From Pseudomonadota bacterium (GTDB taxonomy: Bacteria > Pseudomonadota > Alphaproteobacteria > Micropepsales > Micropepsaceae): a stretch of DNA of 64,000 nucleotides. The notes under the pieces were generated by a model. That model worked only from the letters and a program-made list of their open reading frames with translations, made no database searches and was not told the origin of the DNA. Location of the stretch: the NCBI GenBank assembly GCA_016201105.1, contig JACQDN010000013.1, positions 1 through 64,000 on the forward strand, given 5' to 3'. Both the position numbers and the translations under genes were made by a program. This document shows positions 36,946 through 57,752 of this stretch, in pieces (within the stretch, counting starts at the first letter, position 1; every line of letters starts with the position of its first letter).

Positions 36946-37144
36946 TGCGAATCATCGCGAAATTACGCCGTCGTAACCTAGTTTCGCCGTGCAACGCTGC
37001 TTTGCCCAAAAAAAGGTGCTGCGAAATAGCCGCGGGCCACGCGAAGTTGAACTGGCCGCCAATCGAGTATTTCCACTCTCACTTGCCCGATTGAACCGGG
37101 CAGCCTAACCCTTAGATCAAGATCGCAAATCTCGGGGGGAGTTC

Positions 37145-45901: not shown

Positions 45902-46091
45902 GCCTAGAACCCCAGCGTTGTCCTGGCGCAGTGTTACGGACCCTGCCGGGGCCGAATAAGTACGGAAAACTACCTAGGCCGTAGCGGCCGGCTCGGCCGG
46001 GGTCATGGGACCGGGAAACCGCCTGGGAAGGGATGGCGGCCCTCGCGGCGCCTTCTCTCAAAGACGCGGCGAGGCGGGAGACAGGGGAGGT

Positions 46092-46856
46092 CTATTTCTT
46101 CGGCTTGCGGAATTTGTAGATGAACTGATCGGTCTTTCCGCGAATCGAAGGATCGAACACCAGTTTGTCGTGCGGGTCCCGGGGATTTCGCAGCACGTTG
46201 CTCTCGCCGGCGAACTTGAAGCCTGCGGCCGTCACTTCGCTTTTCACCGAAGCAGGATCGATGCGGTGCAGCGTGTCGGTATCGCGCAGGCCCGAACCTT
46301 TTTGCGCGACATGATCGAGCACGACGAACGCGCCACCGGGCTTCAGCGCTGCGAACACCGCTTTATTTGCGACGGCGAGATCGACGGGTCCGGTGAAGGA
46401 ATCGTGCAGATCGTGATAGTTCTGCGATGTCCACACGACATCGGCGTATTGCGGGATCGGAAAGTTGGCGATCGAAGCGTGAATATAGGTCACATTGGGA
46501 TAGTTGGGATCAGTGCCGGTCGGGATCGGAACGTTGTTCTTCTTGAACACGGCGTCGAACTCGGTCGGAATGAAGGCGTAAACATGTCCCTTCGGACCAA
46601 CGGCACCGGCAAAGATGCGCGTGAAATATCCTCTGCCGGGAATGAGATCGACAACCACCATGCCGGGCCTGATGCCTGCGAATTTCAACATCTCGGCAGG
46701 TTTGCGATCGGCGTCGCGGGCCGTGTCCTTTTCGGGCCGGTTTTTGTCCGCAATCGCCGCGGCGATATAGGCCGGTGTCTTTGATGTGGCCGCCATGCCG
46801 GCGCCAACGCCCGTCAAGGCAACAACGCCGACGGCCAAAGCCAAAATACGTCTCAT
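46092..46856 (-). CDS. exported class I methyltransferase-like protein
   Basis: Protein of 254 residues with a signal peptide (about 1-22, ending GMA) and a SAM methyltransferase-like fold: VVVDLIPGRGYFTRIF (67-82), HVYAFIPTEF and ADVVWTSQNYHDLHD, with the final FKFAGES and FIYKFRKPKK. It is unusual for a methyltransferase to carry an export signal, and SAM is not expected in the periplasm; a repurposed binding fold is possible. The DLIPGRGY motif departs from the usual DxGxGxG. It is divergent from a TonB receptor. Confidence 0.8.
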   Translation of the reverse strand: MRRILALAVGVVALTGVGAGMAATSKTPAYIAAAIADKNRPEKDTARDADRKPAEMLKFAGIRPGMVVVDLIPGRGYFTRIFAGAVGPKGHVYAFIPTEFDAVFKKNNVPIPTGTDPNYPNVTYIHASIANFPIPQYADVVWTSQNYHDLHDSFTGPVDLAVANKAVFAALKPGGAFVVLDHVAQKGSGLRDTDTLHRIDPASVKSEVTAAGFKFAGESNVLRNPRDPHDKLVFDPSIRGKTDQFIYKFRKPKK

Positions 46857-47082
46857 GAAATTGTCCTCCCCTGGGCGGATACACTCAGCCGCCGGCCGGA
46901 GCCTAGCATTCGAGGCGCGGGGAGATAAACGCGAGGTGCTGACGATACCGTGATGGCGGTCATGCCGCGCAAGCACGGCTTCGATGGACAAATGTTTACC
47001 TTGCAGCGGGCTTTCGCCAGCCGTCATGCTTGCTGGCTTAATTCCTTGTCTGACGGCATATTTTGCGTCCGGGGGGAATTCG

Positions 47083-49146
47083 ATGTCTGGTTCAGTTGCT
47101 CGCTGTGGACGATTGGTGGCTGCCGTCGCCGTCGCCGTTGGCGTTACATGTTTGGCGTTTGCGTCATCAAGCCGAGCTGCCGAAAAGATCGAACAGGTCG
47201 TCGTCACGGGCATGCGACCGTTTCCGGCGGTGGGCGCGAAAGCCTTCTCAATGGTTGCGCTCGATGCCGACGCGCTTTCGCGGACCGACCGCCTTGACGA
47301 TGCGCTCAAGCAGGTTCCCGGACTTTCGCTGTTCCGCCGTTCCACCAGCGTCAATGCCAATCCCACAACCCAAGGCGTATCGCTGCGCTCCATCGCGCCA
47401 TCCGGCGCGGGGCGCGCGTTGGTGTTGCTCGATGGCGTGCCGGTCAACGACCCGTTCGGCGGCTGGGTCATCTGGTCGGCGCTGCCTTGGGAAGATTTGG
47501 GCGGCGCGCAAATTCTGCGCGGCGCCGGCACCGGGCCTTACGGCGCGGGCGCGCTCACCGGCACGATCATGCTCGACGAGCGCGAAAACACGCGCGGGAT
47601 TTCCGTCGCCGACGCCGAAGCGGGAAGCCTCGGCACCTATCGCGCCGGTATCTCGGGCGGTGCGTCGCTCGACGATGTCGATTTCTTCGGTCATCTCTCG
47701 GGCGAACGAAGCAACGGCTGGATTCCCGTTGACGCCAACCATCGCGGCGCGGCCGACAATCATCTGTGGCTTGATTCCGCGTCCGGTTCTTTGCGCGCCC
47801 AAACCATGTTCGGCGATGTGGCGGCGACGGCACGCATTGGCTTCTACGATGAGGCGCGGGGGGCGGGCCTTGTGGGGGCCGAAGCGAAAGCGCACGGAAC
47901 CAACGCCAGTCTCACGTTCAAGCGCGACCCGGACGCGAGCGCTCTGGGCTGGCGTATCCAGCTCTGGATGATCCAAAGCGGATTCTCCAACACTTCGGTT
48001 TCCGTTCCCGCAAGCCGCGCCTTCACAACCCCGGCAAACGACCAGTACGCGACCCCCGCCATGGGATACGGACTCAACGCGTCGCTGCTCGACCACACGG
48101 ATGGTCCCGTCGCCTGGGAAATCGGCAGCGATATCCGGGTCAGCGACGGAGAGACGCGCGAATTGTTTCGCTTCATGAGCGGCGCTTTCCGCAACAACCG
48201 GCGCGCCGGCGGAAAACTTGTAATCGCCGGGCTCTACGGCGAAATCTCATACGACGCCGGCCCTTGGCTCTTCACCGCCGGCGTACGAGGCGACTACTGG
48301 GCGACCTCTCAAGGCCATCTGGTCGAGAAATTGCGTTCGACCGGTGCGATCACTAAGGATCAGGACTTTGCCGATCGTGACGGCATTGTGCCCACCGGGC
48401 GCCTCGGACTGCGACGCGCGGTCGGTGACGGCGACTATCTGCGTGTTGCCGCCTACAACGGATTCCGTCCGGCGACATTGAACGAACTCTATCGTCCGTT
48501 CCGGGTCGGCAATGACGTGACCAACGCCAATGCCGGGCTGATACCGGAAAGGCTCTACGGTGCCGAGGCTGGCTGGGGCGGTCAATGGAACGGTTTCACG
48601 TGGAACACCACGCTATTCTGGAACCGGCTTCACGACGCGATCGCGAACGTCACCATAGGTGTCGTGCACTGCGGACCGGTTGTTTGCGGCGTGCTGCGCC
48701 AACGCCAGAACGCAGGCGACGTCGATGCGCTTGGCGTCGAGGGAGATGTCGGGGCCCGGCTGAACGATGCAATCTCATTGCACGGGGCGTTTTCGGTAAC
48801 AGACGCACGATTTGTTTCCGGCCAACTCAATGGCAAACGCCCGGCGCAGGCTCCGCGCATCACTGTCACGGGTAGTGCTTCATGGCAGGTGAGGGACGAT
48901 TTGGCATTGGACGCCGATGTGCGTTGGGAAAGCTCGCGATTTGAGGACGACTTGAATTCGCTGCGGCTGGGGTCCGCTCTGGAAATCGACGCCCGCGCCA
49001 TGTGGAAATTCGGCGATAGCTGGGCCGCCTATCTCGCGATAGACAACGCCCTGGATGCGGACATCGCGACGGGTGAAACTACGGGCCATGTAGTCAGTTT
49101 TGCCTCGCCGCGGGTCTTGCGCATCGGGCTGACTTATTCGCCTTGA
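47083..49146 (+). CDS. TonB-dependent outer membrane receptor
   Basis: Protein of 687 residues with a signal peptide (about 1-32), a TonB box-like IEQVVVTG at 36-43, an N-terminal plug (PTTQGVSLRSIAPSGAGRALVLLDGVPVNDPF, in parts) and a long beta-barrel ending in the terminal aromatic YSP. The plug and barrel lengths are typical. It imports a siderophore, cobamide or similar under TonB energy; the ligand is unknown. ATG 47083 has GGGGGG upstream. It stands alone, divergent from the methyltransferase-like gene. Confidence 0.87.
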   Translation: MSGSVARCGRLVAAVAVAVGVTCLAFASSSRAAEKIEQVVVTGMRPFPAVGAKAFSMVALDADALSRTDRLDDALKQVPGLSLFRRSTSVNANPTTQGVSLRSIAPSGAGRALVLLDGVPVNDPFGGWVIWSALPWEDLGGAQILRGAGTGPYGAGALTGTIMLDERENTRGISVADAEAGSLGTYRAGISGGASLDDVDFFGHLSGERSNGWIPVDANHRGAADNHLWLDSASGSLRAQTMFGDVAATARIGFYDEARGAGLVGAEAKAHGTNASLTFKRDPDASALGWRIQLWMIQSGFSNTSVSVPASRAFTTPANDQYATPAMGYGLNASLLDHTDGPVAWEIGSDIRVSDGETRELFRFMSGAFRNNRRAGGKLVIAGLYGEISYDAGPWLFTAGVRGDYWATSQGHLVEKLRSTGAITKDQDFADRDGIVPTGRLGLRRAVGDGDYLRVAAYNGFRPATLNELYRPFRVGNDVTNANAGLIPERLYGAEAGWGGQWNGFTWNTTLFWNRLHDAIANVTIGVVHCGPVVCGVLRQRQNAGDVDALGVEGDVGARLNDAISLHGAFSVTDARFVSGQLNGKRPAQAPRITVTGSASWQVRDDLALDADVRWESSRFEDDLNSLRLGSALEIDARAMWKFGDSWAAYLAIDNALDADIATGETTGHVVSFASPRVLRIGLTYSP

Positions 49147-49187
49147 TTGGCGCGTCCTAACGGGGATCGCCGATCGCATCCAATCAT

Positions 49188-50411
49188 TTAAGCGCGGGTC
49201 AGGCGGAACTGTCCAACGTCGATGGAGCCCGCGCGGAATCCACCCTCGCAAGAGGCGAGGTAGTAGATCCACATCCGCCGGAAACGTTCGTCGAAACCGA
49301 GCGGCGCGATCTTGGCCCACTTCTCTTCGAAGGTTTCGCGCCAACGCTTCAAGGTTTCCGCATAGGAAGAGCCGAACGTGCGAACGGTCTCGAAACTCAG
49401 GCCTTGTGCGGTCGCAGCCTTCTTGAGTGCGCCTGGCGAAGGCAACATGCCCCCGGGGAAGATGTATGTCTGGATGAAATCGGCGCGGCTGCGATAGCCG
49501 TCGAAGCGGTGCTCGTCGATGGTGATGACCTGCACATTGGCCATGCCGCCAGGCTTCAGCCGGTCATGCACCACCCTGAAGTAGTGCGGCCAGTTTTCCT
49601 CGCCCACGGCTTCGAACATTTCGATGGAAACGACGCGATCGAAAGTGCCTCGCACATCGCGATAATCGATCAATTGGATATCGACCAGATGCGACAGCTG
49701 TGAACGCTCGATTTCCGCCCGCGCATAGTCGAACTGTTCCTGCGACAGCGTGATGCCGGTAACGTGGCATCCAAATTCGCGCGCCGCGTACGTGGCAAAG
49801 CCACCCCAGCCGCAACCGATTTCCAGGATATGGTGGCCGGGCTTGAGGTCGAGGGTCTCGGCGATGCGCTTCCATTTGTTGCGCTGCGCCTCTTCCAGGC
49901 TCATACCGTTGTGTTCGAACACGGCGGATGAGTAGGTCATTGTCGGGTCGAGCCACTGCGAATAGAACGCGTTGCCCAGATCGTAATGCGCCGCGATGTT
50001 CTTTTTGGCGCGAGTGCGGGTGTTCGCCTTCAGTTTGTGCCTCAGGAAGTTGAAGGCGCGCACTGGCGCGATGCCGTTCAATCCGCCCATCAGGCGGTCA
50101 AGATTGCGCATGCCGAATTCGAAAACTTTCGCCAGATCCGGGCTCGTCCAATCGCCGTCCATATAGGCTTCGGCAAAACCGATATCGCCGCGCGTGATCA
50201 TGCGCCGGAACGTGCGCCCGCGCGCAATGTTGAGAACGGCGTGCGCGCCGTCCTTGGCGGCCTTTAGTCCGCGCTCTGCCCCATTGGCAAAGCGGATCAC
50301 GATCTAGCCTTCGCCGATGTTGGAAAAGCTGCGCAACATGGCGCGGCCCCAGGCCGGCGGGCTCTTGGAATTCAACGCCACTGGTACGGCACGCGTCTCA
50401 CGATCGACCAT
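49188..50411 (-). pseudogene. cfa: cyclopropane-fatty-acyl-phospholipid synthase with in-frame TAG
   Basis: From ATG 50411 (8 bp after the DUF1365 stop, GAGGG upstream) the frame encodes the usual N-terminus, then meets TAG at 50304-50306 (codon 36); the frame then continues intact, and translation can restart at GTG 50300. The remaining 370 codons contain ILEIGCGWGGFATYAA, a complete SAM-binding core, and the C-terminal FPGGMLPSPGALK. Cfa adds methylene from SAM to unsaturated phospholipids in the membrane. It may be disrupted, read through or restarted; a sequencing error cannot be excluded. Confidence 0.8.
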
Positions 50412-50419
50412 GTCATCCC

Positions 50420-51169
50420 TCAAATCTTGGCCGGTGCGCTCGCCTCATCATGCCCGTGATGGGGCACCCCCTTCAACCACAGACGTAACGCCTCAAAATG
50501 GATCGCGGCTACGACTTTCAGCGTCATGAGAGGGTAGCGCAGCAGGGCGGAGGCCAGGGCAAACCGGGTCAATGCCTTCTTTTTCCCCGAAAAAATCGCG
50601 GTCAGAACGGGGGCGCCGGATTCGGTCTCGCGGATCGCGATCCGCACGTCATCGCCCGGCGGACGGATGCGAAAGTCATAGGTGCAGTCCATCGAGAGAA
50701 AGGGCGACACGTAGAAGTCTTTGGCGCAACCGTGCTGCACAAGCGCTCGGTTTCCTTTGGCTGGCATCGCATAGGCATGCCTTTCGCCGAAGGTGTTGTG
50801 GACCTCATAAATGATGGCGGCGAGTTCGCCGTTGCTTGCGTGACAGAACCACACGCTCAAGGGATTGAACACATAACCGAAGAGCCGGGGATAGCAGAGC
50901 AGGCGTATGGGACCGCCGGCAGCAAGGCCCGCGCGCGCAAGCCTGTCGTCGACCCAGTCGCGCAATGGCCGGCCGTCGCCGTGATCCTTGTCGTGAAAAC
51001 TCATCACCGCACCCCGGTTGTGGGCGAACAAAAACTGCGAGCGATCGAGAAGACCGAGTTCGTCGATATCGAGAAGCAGGGAAAAGACGCGATAGCGGAA
51101 ACGGTGATGCGCAGGCCGCGCGCGGCTGTGCGTTACCCAGCCTTCGTAGAGCGAAGACGCGAGGGTCAT
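50420..51169 (-). CDS. DUF1365 domain protein
   Basis: Protein of 249 residues matching DUF1365: LYEGWVTHSRARPAHHRFRY at the start, LLCYPRLFGYVFNPLSVWFC in the middle and the C-terminal FALASALLRYPLMTLKVVAA. The DUF1365 family lies in the same operon as FAD-dependent oxidoreductase and cyclopropane synthase in many proteobacteria, and the genes are thought to act in fatty acid modification (furan or cyclopropane type). The start overlaps the previous stop by ATGA. The exact role is unproven. Confidence 0.88.
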   Translation of the reverse strand: MTLASSLYEGWVTHSRARPAHHRFRYRVFSLLLDIDELGLLDRSQFLFAHNRGAVMSFHDKDHGDGRPLRDWVDDRLARAGLAAGGPIRLLCYPRLFGYVFNPLSVWFCHASNGELAAIIYEVHNTFGERHAYAMPAKGNRALVQHGCAKDFYVSPFLSMDCTYDFRIRPPGDDVRIAIRETESGAPVLTAIFSGKKKALTRFALASALLRYPLMTLKVVAAIHFEALRLWLKGVPHHGHDEASAPAKI

Positions 51170-52518
51170 GCCGCCACCGCTATGTTGCTTCGCGCGATCA
51201 CGACGCGCCCCGACTCGTTTTCGATATTCCACGGTCGGCGGACCTGGCCCGCATCTTCCGCGGCGGCCAGGCCGGCCTGCAAGCCATCTTCATGAAAGCC
51301 TGATCCGAAATAGGCGCCGCAGAACCATGTCCGGCGCAAGCCCTGCAGGTCCCACAGGCTGCGCTGTGCGGCCATGGCATCGGTGTCGAAGATGGGATGC
51401 GCATAATGGAATGTGCTGTAGACCAGCTCCTCACGCGGCATTTTCGGCGGATTGAGCGTTATGAAGAGCGGCGCGCGCCGGTCGATCGATTGCAGCTTGT
51501 TCATCCAATAGGTCACGCAGAGATCGTCATTTCCTCGCGTGTTGCTCTTGCCGATATAGTTCCACGCAGCCCAGGTGCCGCGCGCCTTCGGCATCAATGA
51601 GGAATCGCTGTGCAACACCGCTAAGTTATCGCGATAGCGAAAGCGGCTCAGAATTGCGCATTCCTCGTTGGTCGGTTGGTCCAGCATGGCCAAGGCCTGA
51701 TCGGCGTGAGCCGCGATCACCACCGCATCGTGACGGTGACGCTCGCCGGTTTCGTCGACGATTGTAACGCCATGGCTGTCACGAAGAATCGTCTTTGCGC
51801 CATGCCCGGTAAGGATGTTCTTCTCATAGGACGCCGTCAGCTTGCGCACATATTCGCGTGAACCGCCACACACCGTGCGCCATTGCGGGCGGCCCTTGAG
51901 CTTCAGCAAACCATGATTGTCGCAGAAGCGGGCGAAGGAGAGAGCGGGATAGTTGCGCATGTCGTTGAGCGATGACGACCAGATCGCGGCGCCCATCGGC
52001 AGGAGGTGATAGCGGATGAAGGCGTCCGAATAGTTGCCCCGCTTTACGTATTCCTCGAGGCTGATGCGTTCTGCGTTCGGTTCGTTCAAGAGCTTCGGCG
52101 TCTCGCGGTAGAACCGCAGAAGATCGCGCACCATCTGCCAATAATCGGCGCGAATGAGGCAGGCGGGCTGCACAAAGCCTGGAAAATTGCAGGAATATTC
52201 GAAACCGCCCTCATCGAGCGAAACCGAAAAGAACATGTTGCTCGGCTTGGTTTGCACGCCCAGATGGGCGAACAAGGCGGTCAGATTGGGGTAGTTTAAT
52301 TCGTTGTAGACGATGAAGCCGGTATCGACGGGAATGCGGCCGCGCGGTGTATCGACCTCGACCGTATTCGTATGGCCTCCGATTCTGCCGTCTCGCTCGT
52401 AAAGCGTCACACGATGCTTCTGGGAAAGCAGCCAGGCGGCAGACATGCCGGAGATGCCGCTGCCGACCACGGCGAAGTCGCGCGGCGTGGTCCGCGATCC
52501 CAAAACTGGTTGATGCAC
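51166..52518 (-). CDS. FAD/NAD(P)-dependent oxidoreductase of the RpoE regulon
   Basis: Amine oxidase-type flavoprotein of 450 residues. The Rossmann motif VVGSGISG is at about 17-24 with LYERDGRIGGHT; the C-terminus has WFCGAYFGSGFHEDGLQAG. Orthologues sit next to rpoE-chrR with DUF1365 and cfa genes. GTG 52518 is preferred: CAGGAG lies just upstream. A TGATCC-N18-TATTTT promoter precedes it. The product is thought to modify unsaturated fatty acyl chains; the reaction is not settled. Confidence 0.85.
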   Translation of the reverse strand: MHQPVLGSRTTPRDFAVVGSGISGMSAAWLLSQKHRVTLYERDGRIGGHTNTVEVDTPRGRIPVDTGFIVYNELNYPNLTALFAHLGVQTKPSNMFFSVSLDEGGFEYSCNFPGFVQPACLIRADYWQMVRDLLRFYRETPKLLNEPNAERISLEEYVKRGNYSDAFIRYHLLPMGAAIWSSSLNDMRNYPALSFARFCDNHGLLKLKGRPQWRTVCGGSREYVRKLTASYEKNILTGHGAKTILRDSHGVTIVDETGERHRHDAVVIAAHADQALAMLDQPTNEECAILSRFRYRDNLAVLHSDSSLMPKARGTWAAWNYIGKSNTRGNDDLCVTYWMNKLQSIDRRAPLFITLNPPKMPREELVYSTFHYAHPIFDTDAMAAQRSLWDLQGLRRTWFCGAYFGSGFHEDGLQAGLAAAEDAGQVRRPWNIENESGRVVIARSNIAVAA

Positions 52519-52544
52519 GCTGTTCTCCTGCCCCGGTGATGCGC

Positions 52545-52574
52545 AAAATACGCGGCTCCAGGGTGGGCGGATCA
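52545..52574 (-). promoter_or_regulatory. RpoE-type promoter of the FAD oxidoreductase operon
   Basis: On the minus strand, TGATCC (52574-52569), an 18-nt spacer and TATTTT (from 52550). TGATCC with TA at this spacing is the ECF11 promoter type known from Rhodobacter. About 30 bp then separate it from the GTG start. Confidence 0.75.
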
Positions 52575-52588
52575 TTTCCCTTTAGCTG

Positions 52589-52618
52589 TGATCCGGTGGA
52601 TCGCGGTTAGCGTAAATG
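52589..52618 (+). promoter_or_regulatory. RpoE-type promoter of rpoE-chrR
   Basis: TGATCC (52589-52594), an 18-nt spacer and TAAATG (52613-52618) on the plus strand, the mirror partner of the leftward promoter. It implies autoregulation of rpoE. The transcript would have a leader of about 110 nt before ATG 52738. Confidence 0.75.
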
Positions 52619-52737
52619 AGGCTATGATGGCGAATGCGTCGCTTGCTGCCGAACCGTGGCCGAGTAGCAGCCCCGCCTGGACACGGGGTCCCGGCAGGCT
52701 GGCGCATCGCCATCTGTCACTTCTGCGGGCGCGAGTG

Positions 52738-53301
52738 ATGGACCAGGAAACGGCTAGCGCCGTCCGTTTGGACGAGTTGCTGGTAGCAGTGGGTCGCTTG
52801 CGCGACCGCGATGCCTTTCAAACCCTCTTTCAGCATTTCGCTCCCCGTATCAAAGGCTATTTGTTGCGGCTGGGCGCAGGCGCTTCCTTGGCCGACGACT
52901 TGGCGCAGGAAGCCATGCTGACCATGTGGCGCAAGGCGGCGCTGTTCGATCCGGCGAAAGCTTCGGCGGCAACTTGGATATTCACCGTCGCGCGCAATCT
53001 GCGCATCGATGCGATCCGGCGCGAACGCCGTCCGGAGATCGATCCCGAGGATCCCGCTTTGGTTCCCGATGCGGAGCCCGCCGCCGACGCCCAGATGGCG
53101 CAGGCCGGCGACGAATCGCGGCTGCGCGAAGCCTTGAAAGTCCTTTCGCTGGAGCAGGTCCAGGTCATCGAGATGTCTTTTTTTGCCGACAAGCCGCACA
53201 GCGCCATCGCGAAAGAACTCGGCTTGCCGCTCGGCACCGTGAAGTCGCGTATGCGTCTTGCCATGGCACGCATCCGCACCAAACTGGGAGATCTGCGATG
53301 A
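52738..53301 (+). CDS. rpoE: ECF sigma factor RpoE (ECF11 type)
   Basis: Protein of 187 residues. Region 2 spans about 25-98 (FQHFAPRIKGYLLRLG, LAQEAMLTMWRKAALFDP, ATWIFTVARNLRIDAIRRER) and region 4 about 130-183 (LPLGTVKSRMRLAMARIRTKL), close to the Rhodobacter RpoE sequence. It directs RNA polymerase to the singlet-oxygen or peroxide response. The start is uncertain; an open frame exists upstream of ATG 52738. The stop overlaps chrR by ATGA. Confidence 0.93.
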   Translation: MDQETASAVRLDELLVAVGRLRDRDAFQTLFQHFAPRIKGYLLRLGAGASLADDLAQEAMLTMWRKAALFDPAKASAATWIFTVARNLRIDAIRRERRPEIDPEDPALVPDAEPAADAQMAQAGDESRLREALKVLSLEQVQVIEMSFFADKPHSAIAKELGLPLGTVKSRMRLAMARIRTKLGDLR

Positions 53302-53945
53302 GCATCACGCACCATCCCGGCGAAGAACTATTGATCGCCTATGCCTCCGGTACCGCCGATGAAGCGGTATCGTTGATCGTGGCCACGCATATTGCACTTT
53401 GCCCGCAATGCCGCCGAGCCGTTAGAGCCGCCGAGGCAGCCGGCGGTGTCTTGCTCGAAGATTTGAAGCCCGCACGGATTTCGGACGGCGCTCTGAAGGC
53501 TGTGCTGTCGCGCCTCGATTCTCCGGTTGCGACGAAGCCGCCAGTTGCAAAAGCGGTCACCGATTCGAATGTGCCGGAACCCTTGCGTTCCTATATCGGC
53601 GGCTCGCTGCAGGCCGTTTCCTGGATTCCGGTGGCGCGCGGCCTTGCCTACAGGCCGCTGTTTCGCCGAGGTGCGTCGAGGGCCCAGCTTGTCCGCAGTG
53701 CGCCGGGCGCGGGGATCGCCATGCACACTCATCGCGGCGAGGAATTCACGCTGGTGCTGGAGGGCGGTTACGGCGATACGACCGGCCACTACCTGCGCGG
53801 CGATTTGCAATCGGCATCGGCCGAGATCGAACATCGTCCGATCGCGGACGAAGGGGGCTATTGTTTCAGCCTCGCCGTGGTCGATGCACCGCTCTCGTTT
53901 CGCAGCAGTGCGATCGCGCTTCTCGCAAAAGTGATGGGTCTGTGA
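53298..53945 (+). CDS. chrR: ChrR-type anti-sigma factor
   Basis: Protein of 215 residues. The N-terminal zinc-binding anti-sigma domain carries His6, His31, Cys35 and Cys38 in THIALCPQC; the C-terminal cupin domain has His143, His145 and Glu149 in MHTHRGEEFTLVLEGG. ChrR holds RpoE until singlet oxygen or organic peroxide signals release. It starts 4 nt inside rpoE, guaranteeing coupled synthesis. Confidence 0.95.
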   Translation: MSITHHPGEELLIAYASGTADEAVSLIVATHIALCPQCRRAVRAAEAAGGVLLEDLKPARISDGALKAVLSRLDSPVATKPPVAKAVTDSNVPEPLRSYIGGSLQAVSWIPVARGLAYRPLFRRGASRAQLVRSAPGAGIAMHTHRGEEFTLVLEGGYGDTTGHYLRGDLQSASAEIEHRPIADEGGYCFSLAVVDAPLSFRSSAIALLAKVMGL

Positions 53946-53948
53946 TCT

Positions 53949-54449
53949 TCACTTCAGATAGATCAGCGCCGTTTCGCCGTCGTTGACCCCGCCTTTCTCT
54001 TCGGAAAAGCGCGACAGGATAAAGCCCGACGCGCCGACGAACACGCCGGTTCCTCCGACGACTTTCCACACGACGTAGCCGCTGTTTACGCCCTTGATCT
54101 TGGATGGCCCGATACGGCCAGGACCGGCGGATTGAACCATCACGGTGCCGCCGCCGAAGGTGATTGTACCCTTTTCGCTAAATGTACCCTTGGCGCCGAC
54201 CGTCACGAGCGTGTTGACGATGACGCTGTTCTGCCCGCCGGAGACAGTGCTGTCGACGTCGCTCGGGAGCGTCGCGCTTTCCTTCACGGTGAGATGCTTG
54301 CCGCTCTTGTCCGGCACTGCGTCGCCCGTGAAAGCCAGAAGGTAGCGCACCATTTTCGGGCTTGAAGGTGCGGCGGTGTCCGCCATGGCGCCGTGAGCGG
54401 CATAGAACGCGAAAGCCAGTCCCGAAAATGCGACAGCGAGTTTGCGCAT
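53949..54449 (-). CDS. exported hypothetical protein, possibly beta-barrel fold
   Basis: Protein of 166 residues with a signal peptide ending about AHGAMA-D, followed by a beta-rich domain with Gly/Val/Thr repeats (GTFSEKGTITFGGGTVMV, GGTGVFVGASGFILSRF). The strand pattern could suit a small calycin- or AOC-like barrel, but the family is not recognised. It converges on chrR, so it is not part of that operon. No metal or catalytic motif is evident. Confidence 0.65.
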   Translation of the reverse strand: MRKLAVAFSGLAFAFYAAHGAMADTAAPSSPKMVRYLLAFTGDAVPDKSGKHLTVKESATLPSDVDSTVSGGQNSVIVNTLVTVGAKGTFSEKGTITFGGGTVMVQSAGPGRIGPSKIKGVNSGYVVWKVVGGTGVFVGASGFILSRFSEEKGGVNDGETALIYLK

Positions 54450-54560
54450 GTTTTCCCCTATGTAAGCGGGGAGCCTAACATCAAGGCGGGCTACGGCCAA
54501 TGCGATAGCCACTGCCGGTTAAGCCGTCCTATGCTGATCGGCAGAGAAGTGGAGGACGCC

Positions 54561-55544
54561 ATGGAATACGTAAAGCTCGGGAACACCGGCCTCAAGGTCT
54601 CGCGCATCTGTCTGGGCACGATGACCTATGGTTCGCCGAAATGGCGCGATTGGATCCTGGACGAGGAAGCAAGCCGTCCTTTCATCAAGAGCGCGCTGGA
54701 GGCGGGGATCAATTTCTTCGACACCGCGGACGTCTATTCCATGGGCGCGAGCGAAGAAGTGCTGGGCCGAGCGCTCAAGGATTTCGGCCCACCACGCGAG
54801 CAAGTCGTCGTCGCCACCAAAGTGTTCAGTCCCATGGGCGCTACACCCAACGAGGCAGGCCTTTCACGCAAGCATATCATGCATGGCATCGATAATTCCT
54901 TGAAGCGCCTGGGCATGGATTATGTCGACCTCTATCAAATCCACCGCTTCGATCCAACGACGCCGGTCGACGAAACCATCGAGGCGCTGCATGACGTGGT
55001 CAAAGCGGGCAAGGCGCTCTACGTCGGCGCGTCCTCGATGTATGCCTATCAATTTGCGAAATATCTCCATCGCGCCGACGCGCTCGGCAAGACGCGCTTC
55101 GTGTCCATGCAGAACCATTATAATTTGGTCTATCGCGAAGAGGAGCGTGAGATGATACCGCTCTGTCGCGAGGAAGGCATCGCCGTCATTCCGTGGAGTC
55201 CGCTGGCGCGCGGCTTCCTCGCCGGCAATCGCCGCCGCCAAGACAAGGGCGAGACCACACGCGCCAAGAGCGATGAGTTCGCGCACATGATGTACTACAA
55301 CGACGGCGATTTCGCGGTGGTCGACAAGCTGAGTGAAATCGCGCAAAAGCGCGGCGTATCAAACGCGCAAGTCGCGCTCGCCTGGCTCTTGAGCCGGCCG
55401 GGGGTTACGGCCCCCATCGTCGGGGCATCGAAGATGCCTCATTTGCAAGACGCCATTGCCGCAGCCTCGCTCAAACTGGAAGAGACCGAGATCAAGGCGC
55501 TCAACGAGCCGTACACGCCCCATCGCGTGCTGGGCCACCGCTAG
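54561..55544 (+). CDS. aldo/keto reductase
   Basis: TIM-barrel oxidoreductase of 327 residues. KLGNTGLKVSRICLGTMTYG starts the fold, FFDTADVYSMGASEEVLGRAL supplies Asp and Tyr, VVATKVF the Lys and YQIHRFDPTTP the His of the catalytic tetrad; the NADP-binding IVGAS segment is near the end. It reduces aldehydes or ketones with NADPH. GGAGG lies 5 nt before ATG 54561. The substrate is unknown. Confidence 0.9.
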   Translation: MEYVKLGNTGLKVSRICLGTMTYGSPKWRDWILDEEASRPFIKSALEAGINFFDTADVYSMGASEEVLGRALKDFGPPREQVVVATKVFSPMGATPNEAGLSRKHIMHGIDNSLKRLGMDYVDLYQIHRFDPTTPVDETIEALHDVVKAGKALYVGASSMYAYQFAKYLHRADALGKTRFVSMQNHYNLVYREEEREMIPLCREEGIAVIPWSPLARGFLAGNRRRQDKGETTRAKSDEFAHMMYYNDGDFAVVDKLSEIAQKRGVSNAQVALAWLLSRPGVTAPIVGASKMPHLQDAIAAASLKLEETEIKALNEPYTPHRVLGHR

Positions 55545-55549
55545 GGTGA

Positions 55550-57076
55550 TCAGTGCTGCGGTTTCTGGTTTTCCGGCGGCGTCTGTTCCGGCCCGGGAGT
55601 GGCAGGAACGGGCGCTACGGGTGAGGGCGTAGGCGCCGGCACCGCCGAGGTCGGCGCAGTGGTCGTTGCAGCCGATTGCGGAATCTTCTGTGTCGCATCG
55701 TCCGGATTTTCGGACCAGCCGCCGCCCAGCGCGTTGTGCAGTCCCACGATTGCCTGGATGCGCGCGAGCTTGATCTGCACTAGGCGGTCTTGCGCGGTGA
55801 ACAGCGTCTGCTGCGACTGCAGCACTGTGAGCAGGTCCGCCACGCCTTCGCGATACTGGATTTCCGAAATGCGGAAGGCTTCCGCCGCCGCGTTCACTTG
55901 TTCGGTCGTCAGACGGTCCTGTTCAGCCAAGCTGGAGACCTGGCCAAGCGCGATTTCCACATCGGAGAACGCGTTCAGCACCGCCTTGCGGTAGTTCGCG
56001 ATCAACTCTTCCTGGCGCGCGCGCGCCTGGCGGCTTTCCCCGATCAAGCGGCCGCCATCGAAGATCGTCTGCAGCAATGAGGCGCCGAGCGTGTAGCCGA
56101 AACTCGAACTCTTGAAGAGCGTCGACAGCGCCGCGCTGGTCACGCCGCCGGATGTTGTGAGGTTGATGATGGGGAAGAATGCCGCGCGCGCCGCGTCGAC
56201 ATTCGCATGCGCTGCGGCGAGATCGGCTTCGGCCTGTGCCACGTCGGGGCGGCGGCGAAGCAGTTCGGACGGAATTCCGGGGGCAACGACCGGCGCGGCA
56301 ATGCCGTCGAGATTCTGCGCGTTGACGTCAAAACCCTCCGGCAAACGGGCCAAGAGCAGGGCGAGAGCGTAGCGCGCCTCGCGCTCTTGCTGTTCGAGGG
56401 CCGGAATCTGGGCTTTCTGTCCGGAAAGCAGGGCCTGTTGCTGCGCAAGATCGAGCCGCGACGAAACACCATTGGTCACTTTGGCTTCGGTGATGGCAAG
56501 AACGCGCTCGGCGGCAGCGATGTTCGCTTTTGAAATCGAGACCCGCTCGCGAAGCGCCAGAACGTCGAAATAAGTGTTGGCGGTATTGGCCGTGACCGTC
56601 AGGGCGACGATCTGCTGGGCGAAGTGCGAGGCTTTCAACGTTTCATTTGCGGCACGCAAATTGGACTGTGCGAGACCCCACAGATCGAGTTGATAACTGG
56701 CGTTGAGCGACGCCCCAAACGTGGTGTGTCCGGGGCCGGTTTTCTTGCCGGTGCGTTGAGCGTTTCCACCCAAATCGATCGAGGGGAAAAGCGCGGATCC
56801 GGCTATGTCGGTCTGCGCGTCCGCTTCCAACACGCGTGCGGCAGCCGCGGCAAGATCGAGATTGTTCGTCTGGGCGCTGGCGATGAGCCCGTTCATCTCG
56901 TCGCTGTTGAAGCCTTTCCACCAGTCGGTTGACGGCCACACCTGTGCACCCGGCGTGACGGGGCCCACGAAACCCGAGGGGATGTCGTTGTCCTTGAGGA
57001 CAATCGGGACGGGCGTGCACCCGGCGGCAACCAGCGCAAGTACGGCTATGGACGAGGTGCGGAGCAACGCATTCAT
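55550..57076 (-). CDS. efflux outer membrane factor, NodT family
   Basis: TolC-like protein of 508 residues with a lipobox AAGC (Cys20) and two helical hairpin repeats, each with ALR-type and R-x-D-x2-A motifs (RRRPDVAQAEADLAAAHANV, YREGVADLLTVLQSQQTLF). A Pro/Thr/Ala-rich tail of about 50 residues follows. It forms an outer membrane exit duct for efflux pumps. A decayed macB lies 6 bp upstream, so the original partner pump is lost, and the protein must work with a pump elsewhere or be silent. Confidence 0.88.
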   Translation of the reverse strand: MNALLRTSSIAVLALVAAGCTPVPIVLKDNDIPSGFVGPVTPGAQVWPSTDWWKGFNSDEMNGLIASAQTNNLDLAAAAARVLEADAQTDIAGSALFPSIDLGGNAQRTGKKTGPGHTTFGASLNASYQLDLWGLAQSNLRAANETLKASHFAQQIVALTVTANTANTYFDVLALRERVSISKANIAAAERVLAITEAKVTNGVSSRLDLAQQQALLSGQKAQIPALEQQEREARYALALLLARLPEGFDVNAQNLDGIAAPVVAPGIPSELLRRRPDVAQAEADLAAAHANVDAARAAFFPIINLTTSGGVTSAALSTLFKSSSFGYTLGASLLQTIFDGGRLIGESRQARARQEELIANYRKAVLNAFSDVEIALGQVSSLAEQDRLTTEQVNAAAEAFRISEIQYREGVADLLTVLQSQQTLFTAQDRLVQIKLARIQAIVGLHNALGGGWSENPDDATQKIPQSAATTTAPTSAVPAPTPSPVAPVPATPGPEQTPPENQKPQH

Positions 57077-57081
57077 GGGGA

Positions 57082-57752
57082 CTACTCGCTCGCGAGCGCG
57101 ACCACAGGATCGAGCTTTGCCGCTTTCATAGCGGGTGCAAAGCCGAAAACAAGGCCCGTGGCCACGGCTCAGGTGAAGGCAAGAATCATAGGAACTGCCG
57201 CAAACGATATCGGCGTGCCGAAGGCTGCAATCAATAGGCCGGCGCCCACGCCGGTCAAAATGCCCAGGACGCCGCCCAAGGCGCAACCACGGTCGCTTCC
57301 GTAAGGAAATGCTGGAGGATATCGCGGGTACGGGCTCCCGTAGGCATGCGAATCCCTATTTCGTGAGTCCGTTCAGTAACGCTGACAAGCATTGTGTTCA
57401 TGACGCCTATGCCGCCCACGAGGAGTGAAATAGCAGTGACCGATGCGAGCAAAATTGTGAGCGTATTCTGCGCCATAGTGGCAGTTTGCAGAATCTCGGC
57501 CATGTAGCGGATGAAGAAATCTTCATTCCCGCTATGCCGGGCCTTTAATGTTGCGGTCCCGTTGTCTTGGACCGAACTCGTTGTATTTCGATTGCTGACG
57601 GCGATGGTGATGAACCGCGTGTCGTGCTGCCAGAACACGTGCAACGTGCCTGTGGATAAGGGGATGAGGATGACGTCGTCGGCGTCAGCGCCGCGCGGTC
57701 GTGCCGTTGCTGGACATCTCCCCGATGACCGAAAGGGCACATTGTTCACCAA
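57082..57752 (-). pseudogene. macB permease remnant
   Basis: The C-terminal part of an ABC-type macrolide exporter permease: [20 protein letters not shown] and [20 protein letters not shown] are clear. After LTEATVV the frame shifts; the next frame continues [20 protein letters not shown], is stopped by TGA at about 57169, then resumes TGLVFGFAPAMKAAKLDPVV. An earlier frameshift is visible around 57700. The ATPase and N-terminal domains are missing. Together these make it a pseudogene upstream of the outer membrane factor. Confidence 0.9.

What the first reader, a model, noticed from the sequence alone, without database searches (positions are those of the whole stretch)
50298..50411. In-frame TAG at codon 36 of the cyclopropane fatty acid synthase gene
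From ATG 50411, which follows the DUF1365 stop by 8 bp with a GAGGG ribosome-binding site, the reading frame encodes a family-like N-terminus up to ...NIGEG, meets TAG (50304-50306), and continues in the same frame as IVIRFANG with no frameshift. The rest of the protein is intact. This may be a real nonsense mutation, a readthrough site, or a case where GTG 50300 takes over as start. If real, it would silence or lower Cfa specifically in the RpoE regulon of this strain.
Basis: partly seen in the sequence, partly recalled or inferred. Interest (0 to 1): 0.75.

Follow-up and report, generated by a model that had tools for sequence, protein, structure and literature searches.

The report
Premature stop in furan-lipid methylase gene

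Summary
From ATG 50411 (minus strand) the frame reads 35 sense codons, then TAG at 50306-50304, and stays open in the same frame to TAA at 49190-49188. The 91 homologues aligned have a sense codon there (Glu in the three closest) and a start codon upstream, so the stop lies inside normal coding sequence.

The gene name needs correcting. The operon order (FAD amine-oxidase-like, DUF1365, methylase) behind a divergent ECF sigma/ChrR pair matches ufaD-ufaO-ufaM, the furan fatty acid genes of Rhodopseudomonas palustris. A separate intact gene of this genome groups with E. coli Cfa. The stop would therefore hit furan fatty acids at their first step, not cyclopropanes.

RF1 is present and none of 37 tRNA genes found (an incomplete set) has a CUA anticodon, so efficient readthrough is unlikely. 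After the stop, 84 of 84 highly conserved residues are kept: either the mutation is young, or a shorter protein from GTG 50300, three bases past the stop, still works. Most likely it is a recent nonsense allele with perhaps a little restart product. The three closest relatives lack other pieces of the same operon, which suggests piecemeal loss of the pathway.

The parts
   Evidence: Frame and translation; CMAS domain; alignment with 91 homologues
50304..50306 (-). premature TAG, codon 36
   Evidence: sense codon in 91 of 91 homologues
50307..50411 (-). 35-codon leader frame, homologous to the normal N-terminus
   Evidence: 57% identical to L036, 34% to L035; open and with an upstream start in 91 of 91 homologues
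49188..50300 (-). frame from GTG 50300, 370 residues, possible restart product
   Evidence: model pLDDT 90.4
50420..51169 (-). ufaO-like gene (DUF1365); its ATG overlaps the stop of the gene before it (ATGA)
   Evidence: PF07103, E 2.7e-83; sequence
51166..52575 (-). ufaD-like gene (FAD amine-oxidase family); its real start is probably downstream of the listed ATG 52575, since the promoter-like motif begins at 52574
   Evidence: PF01593, PF13450
52547..52574 (-). promoter-like motif TGATCC...GTATT facing the operon
52589..52616 (+). promoter-like motif TGATCC...GTAAA facing the sigma gene
52738..53301 (+). ECF sigma factor gene
   Evidence: Sigma70 regions 2 and 4; TIGR02937 above cut-off
53298..53945 (+). 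ChrR-type anti-sigma factor gene
   Evidence: TIGR02451 above cut-off; Cupin_7

Best explanation
A recent nonsense mutation in the ufaM-like gene of a sigma-E/ChrR-type furan fatty acid operon. Ribosomes start at ATG 50411 and stop after 35 residues, so full-length methylase is not made, or only in traces. Some ribosomes may restart at GTG 50300 and make a 370-residue protein that lacks the first helix and half of the first strand of the N-terminal domain; this is expected to be weak or inactive. Predicted effect: loss or strong reduction of 11-methyl-12-octadecenoate and of the furan fatty acid made from it, while cyclopropanes stay possible through the separate Cfa-like gene. Shown: the stop, homology on both sides of it, the operon, the separate Cfa-like gene. 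Inferred: the name ufaM (gene order and tree), loss of activity, the restart, and the products.
For: Stop absent from 91 of 91 homologues, which all have a start codon upstream of it. Better start site at ATG 50411 than at GTG 50300. RF1 present; no CUA anticodon among 37 tRNA genes. Operon order and tree place the gene with ufaM-type neighbours, apart from E. coli Cfa. No departure at 84 of 84 columns conserved in at least 95% of the others, so the break is young if the gene is dead. Another broken gene, a macB-like remnant, lies 7 kb away, and the three closest relatives lack other genes of this operon at the same place.
Against: The intact rest is equally expected if a short protein is still used. 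The GTG stands in a convenient place. One assembly, no reads: an assembly error or a minority allele is not excluded. Other operon genes show no sign of relaxed selection, so the pathway may still run. The tree was a quick one, and E. coli Cfa and the own paralogue are long branches. No sequence of an experimentally tested UfaM was in hand.
Confidence: 0.65

Rival explanations
1. Termination-reinitiation: the stop ends a short leader and ribosomes restart at GTG 50300, making a shortened methylase that still works and is under selection.
For: GTG lies 3 bases past the stop in the right frame. 0 of 84 departures after the stop. The short form is still modelled with confidence (pLDDT 90.4). Reinitiation near a stop codon is documented in bacteria (PMC6728339, passages).
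Against: Average Shine-Dalgarno match. All 91 homologues keep an open N-terminal part with an upstream start. The cut falls inside a strand modelled at 34-41 of the intact relative. The N-terminal domain of E. coli Cfa is described as lipid-binding (PMC11387697, passages).
Confidence: 0.17
2. Assembly or consensus error, or a minority allele: the population carries a sense codon.
For: One draft assembly of 84 contigs, no reads available; the rest of the gene is intact.
Against: A single clean substitution-type difference without indel; the neighbouring codon also differs from relatives. The assembly is 98.63% complete with 0.05% contamination, which does not measure base accuracy.
Confidence: 0.12
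3. Programmed or efficient readthrough of TAG, giving full-length protein.
For: The frame continues unbroken and conserved.
Against: RF1 present, 484.5 bits against a cut-off of 423.25; no CUA anticodon among 37 tRNA genes (the set is incomplete, since no tRNA-Ile is in it); stop not present in any of 91 homologues; 3 of 11 gene frames checked in the window end in TAG.
Confidence: 0.03

Closest known systems
ufaD-ufaO-ufaM of Rhodopseudomonas palustris (RPA2571-2569) and ufaM (RSP2144), ufaD, ufaO (RSP1091, RSP1090) of Rhodobacter sphaeroides (PMC7380195, passages seen)
   Same: Gene order oxidase/desaturase - DUF1365 - methylase; ChrR-linked regulation as in R. sphaeroides; SAM-dependent fatty acyl methylase family.
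   Different: Here the methylase gene is interrupted by TAG at codon 36; products not tested.
Cyclopropane fatty acid synthase (E. coli Cfa)
   Same: CMAS domain and overall protein family.
   Different: Below the cut-offs of both cyclopropane synthase models; separate branch; this genome has another gene that groups with E. coli Cfa.
Nonsense alleles with downstream restart (termination-reinitiation)
   Same: Stop followed after 3 bases by an in-frame start codon.
   Different: No expression evidence; average Shine-Dalgarno match.

Membership tests
UfaM (furan fatty acid methylase) | Third gene after a ufaD-like oxidase and a DUF1365 ufaO-like gene | tested here: met
   This order is shared by 36 of 74 named loci with enough upstream sequence.
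UfaM (furan fatty acid methylase) | Makes 11Me-12t-18:1 from vaccenoyl chains | not testable with these tools
   Needs lipid analysis.
UfaM (furan fatty acid methylase) | Sequence groups with an experimentally tested UfaM | tested here: inconclusive
   RSP2144 and RPA2569 were not in hand; the tree holds a Rhodopseudomonas homologue with the same gene order (L125) and is apart from E. coli Cfa.
Cyclopropane fatty acid synthase | Passes the curated model cut-offs | tested here: not met
   302.7 of 400 and 273.8 of 600 bits for the 370-residue part; the intact relative L036 290.4 and 283.5. E. coli Cfa as control 701.9 of 400.
Recoded or readthrough stop | A decoder of TAG, or a conserved stop | tested here: not met
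   RF1 present; no CUA tRNA among 37; stop in 0 of 91 homologues. tRNA set incomplete.
Long-dead pseudogene | Several lesions or relaxed constraint after the stop | tested here: not met
   One lesion; 0 of 84 departures. Hints of faster change: end branch 0.34 against 0.18, 0.22 and 0.24; 2 of 12 relative-rate tests above 3.84, both against L036. A young pseudogene is not excluded.

The most novel reading that the evidence does not exclude
The ufaM-like gene has become a two-part unit: a 35-residue leader whose termination feeds a restart at GTG 50300, giving a shortened, still active methylase with a reduced lipid-binding domain, and so a translational throttle on furan fatty acid output within the sigma-E response.
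Probability: 0.12. Interest if true: 0.45.

Novelty: new member of a known kind. Interest (0 to 1): 0.2.

Why it matters
It corrects the likely identity of the gene and with it the test to run: look for methylated and furan fatty acids rather than cyclopropanes. It also points to a small natural series, four related genomes with four different states of one furan fatty acid operon, in which one could ask which steps are dispensable and in what order the pathway is lost. The stop itself is an ordinary event.

Tried and rejected
Readthrough or reassigned TAG: rejected on RF1, the tRNA genes found and the absence of the stop in homologues. Compensating frameshift: none, the frame is the same on both sides. 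True gene starting at GTG 50300 from the outset: disfavoured, since 91 of 91 homologues are open upstream with a start codon and the leader is homologous.

Apparent in-frame stops in other genus members (column stops_inside for DUF1365 of G071 and the oxidase of G069) looked like parallel decay. On inspection the aligned part of G071 (query residues 4-234) holds no stop and the two stops of G069 lie ahead of the conserved start of the oxidase; I dropped them. Stops in window alignments at 37106, 62858 and 62867 also lie ahead of probable starts. Many further alignments flagged overlap on the opposite strand or in other frames; I took them for shadow frames and did not follow them one by one. 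One search examined 6 query proteins. Silent-site ratios were not used, because third positions of the body already differ at 46-55% between the four sequences. Plasmid records gave no match.

For the departure tests, rows covering 75% or less of a gene or scoring 100 bits or less were left out (rows kept with the window: 45, 48, 15, 22, 92). In one search, 6 of 80 named loci were set aside for short upstream sequence.

Full report
WHAT IS THERE. On the minus strand the frame from ATG 50411 reads 35 sense codons, TAG at 50306-50304, and 371 further sense codons to TAA at 49190-49188. The ATG follows the TGA of the DUF1365 gene by 8 bases, with GAGGG just upstream; its duplex energy with the 16S tail is -6.1 kcal/mol, reached at 8% of 990 positions of the gene. 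GTG 50300 lies 3 bases after the stop; its site scores -3.8, reached at 31%. Proteins of three relatives align through the stop in one frame at 65.1-68.6% identity.

IS THE STOP INSIDE NORMAL CODING SEQUENCE? Yes. I aligned the window with 91 homologues: 80 named loci (the best 80 of 594 confirmed) and 11 from unnamed relatives. At codon 36 these have R 40, T 13, Q 7, A 7, S 7, E 6, H 3, K 3, D 2, N 1, I 1, C 1, and no stop; the three closest have E, encoded GAA. The Gly of position 35 is kept in 90 of the 91. All 91 have an open frame with a start codon upstream of it.

WHICH GENE IS IT? The protein has the CMAS domain but falls below both cyclopropane-synthase cut-offs, as does the intact relative L036; E. 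coli Cfa, run as a control, passes with 701.9 of 400. Its operon is FAD amine-oxidase-like (51166-52575), DUF1365 (50420-51169), methylase, divergent from an ECF sigma factor and a ChrR anti-sigma factor. Between them stand TGATCC...GTATT and TGATCC...GTAAA, the only two hits of my pattern in 46001-56000, with the same divergent pair in L036, L037 and L040 (the pattern also hits elsewhere in the relatives' loci and chance was not estimated). In Rhodopseudomonas palustris RPA2571, 2570 and 2569 are ufaD, ufaO and ufaM, and UfaO carries DUF1365 (PMC7380195, passages). The order matches; Rhodopseudomonas pseudopalustris (L125) shows it around its homologue. Of 74 named loci with enough upstream sequence, 36 have both genes directly upstream, 2 DUF1365 only, 1 the oxidase only, 35 neither. 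In R. sphaeroides too ufaM lies apart from the other two (PMC12089945, passage). In a tree of 112 proteins the window gene sits with three same-genus relatives (support 99), apart from E. coli Cfa, which groups with the second homologue of the window's own genome (a quick tree, both are long branches). That second gene is intact and scores 595.6 of 600 on one cyclopropane-synthase model, just under its cut-off. I therefore read the broken gene as ufaM-like. No tested UfaM sequence was in hand, so the name rests on gene order and tree.

WHAT THE STOP DOES. Efficient readthrough is unlikely: RF1 is present and none of 37 tRNA genes has a CUA anticodon, though that set is incomplete (no tRNA-Ile in it). 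Restart at GTG 50300 is possible; termination-reinitiation is documented for closely spaced stop and start codons (PMC6728339, passages). The product would begin in the middle of the first strand: the model of intact L036 has a helix at 20-28 and a strand at 34-41. The 370-residue form is still modelled with confidence, but such models say little about activity. The N-terminal domain is described as lipid-binding in E. coli and Pseudomonas Cfa, and mycobacterial enzymes that lack it act on substrates that are not in the plasma membrane (PMC11387697, passages). I expect the short form to be weak or inactive.

HOW OLD IS IT? The sequence after the stop departs at 0 of 84 columns conserved in at least 95% of the others, and at 2 of 110 at the 90% level (median over the 92 rows 3). 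The window's end branch is longer than those of its relatives (0.34 against 0.18, 0.22, 0.24), and 2 of 12 relative-rate tests exceed 3.84, both against L036, so slight acceleration is possible. The other operon genes show no clear excess of departures (ufaO-like 0 of 41, median 1; ufaD-like 5 of 109, median 4). The mutation is young, or a short protein is still selected; these data cannot separate the two.

THE CLADE. In the three closest relatives the same locus is in other states: G002 lacks the ufaD-like gene there, G004 the ufaO-like gene, and in G034 neither these nor the sigma and ChrR genes are found on the 14-kb contig, the methylase standing next to the aldo-keto reductase that flanks the locus. 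Genome-wide, G002 has only a 43% oxidase and G004 a 37% DUF1365 elsewhere; G034, 86% complete, has neither. The complete order in more distant bacteria suggests losses. Against a simple story, other genus members often hold DUF1365 and oxidase genes in other places, so rearrangement and replacement also play a part. Piecemeal loss is an inference from four genomes.

OTHER BREAKS NEARBY. A macB-like efflux gene at 57085-57752 is a remnant: only the last third of a relative's protein is matched, in two frames, with a stop. So this genome does carry dead genes, and the ufaM stop is not an isolated oddity.

NOVELTY. A nonsense allele of a known kind of gene. One literature search (furan fatty acid + pseudogene + bacteri) listed one paper, on a fungal desaturase, which I did not open; my remark that I know of no report of ufaM loss rests on that search alone. 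Interest is modest: the corrected gene identity matters more than the stop.

Noticed in passing
57085-57752 (minus strand): Remnant of a macB-like ABC efflux gene: only residues 441-664 of a 664-residue relative protein are matched, in two different frames, with a stop at 57171. It lies upstream of an outer-membrane efflux-type gene (55550-57286; that label is from sequence look and recall, not from a call).
   Followed up: partly
51166-51169: ATGA overlap of the ufaD-like stop and the ufaO-like start, suggesting translational coupling.
   Followed up: no
L036, L037, L035 (G004, G002, G034): The same operon is reduced differently in each of the three closest relatives.
   Followed up: partly
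L002 (G000:C59): Separate intact Cfa-like gene of 414 residues that groups with E. coli Cfa.
   Followed up: yes
50301-50306: Besides codon 36, codon 37 also differs from the three closest relatives (Ile ATC, where they have Leu).
   Followed up: no
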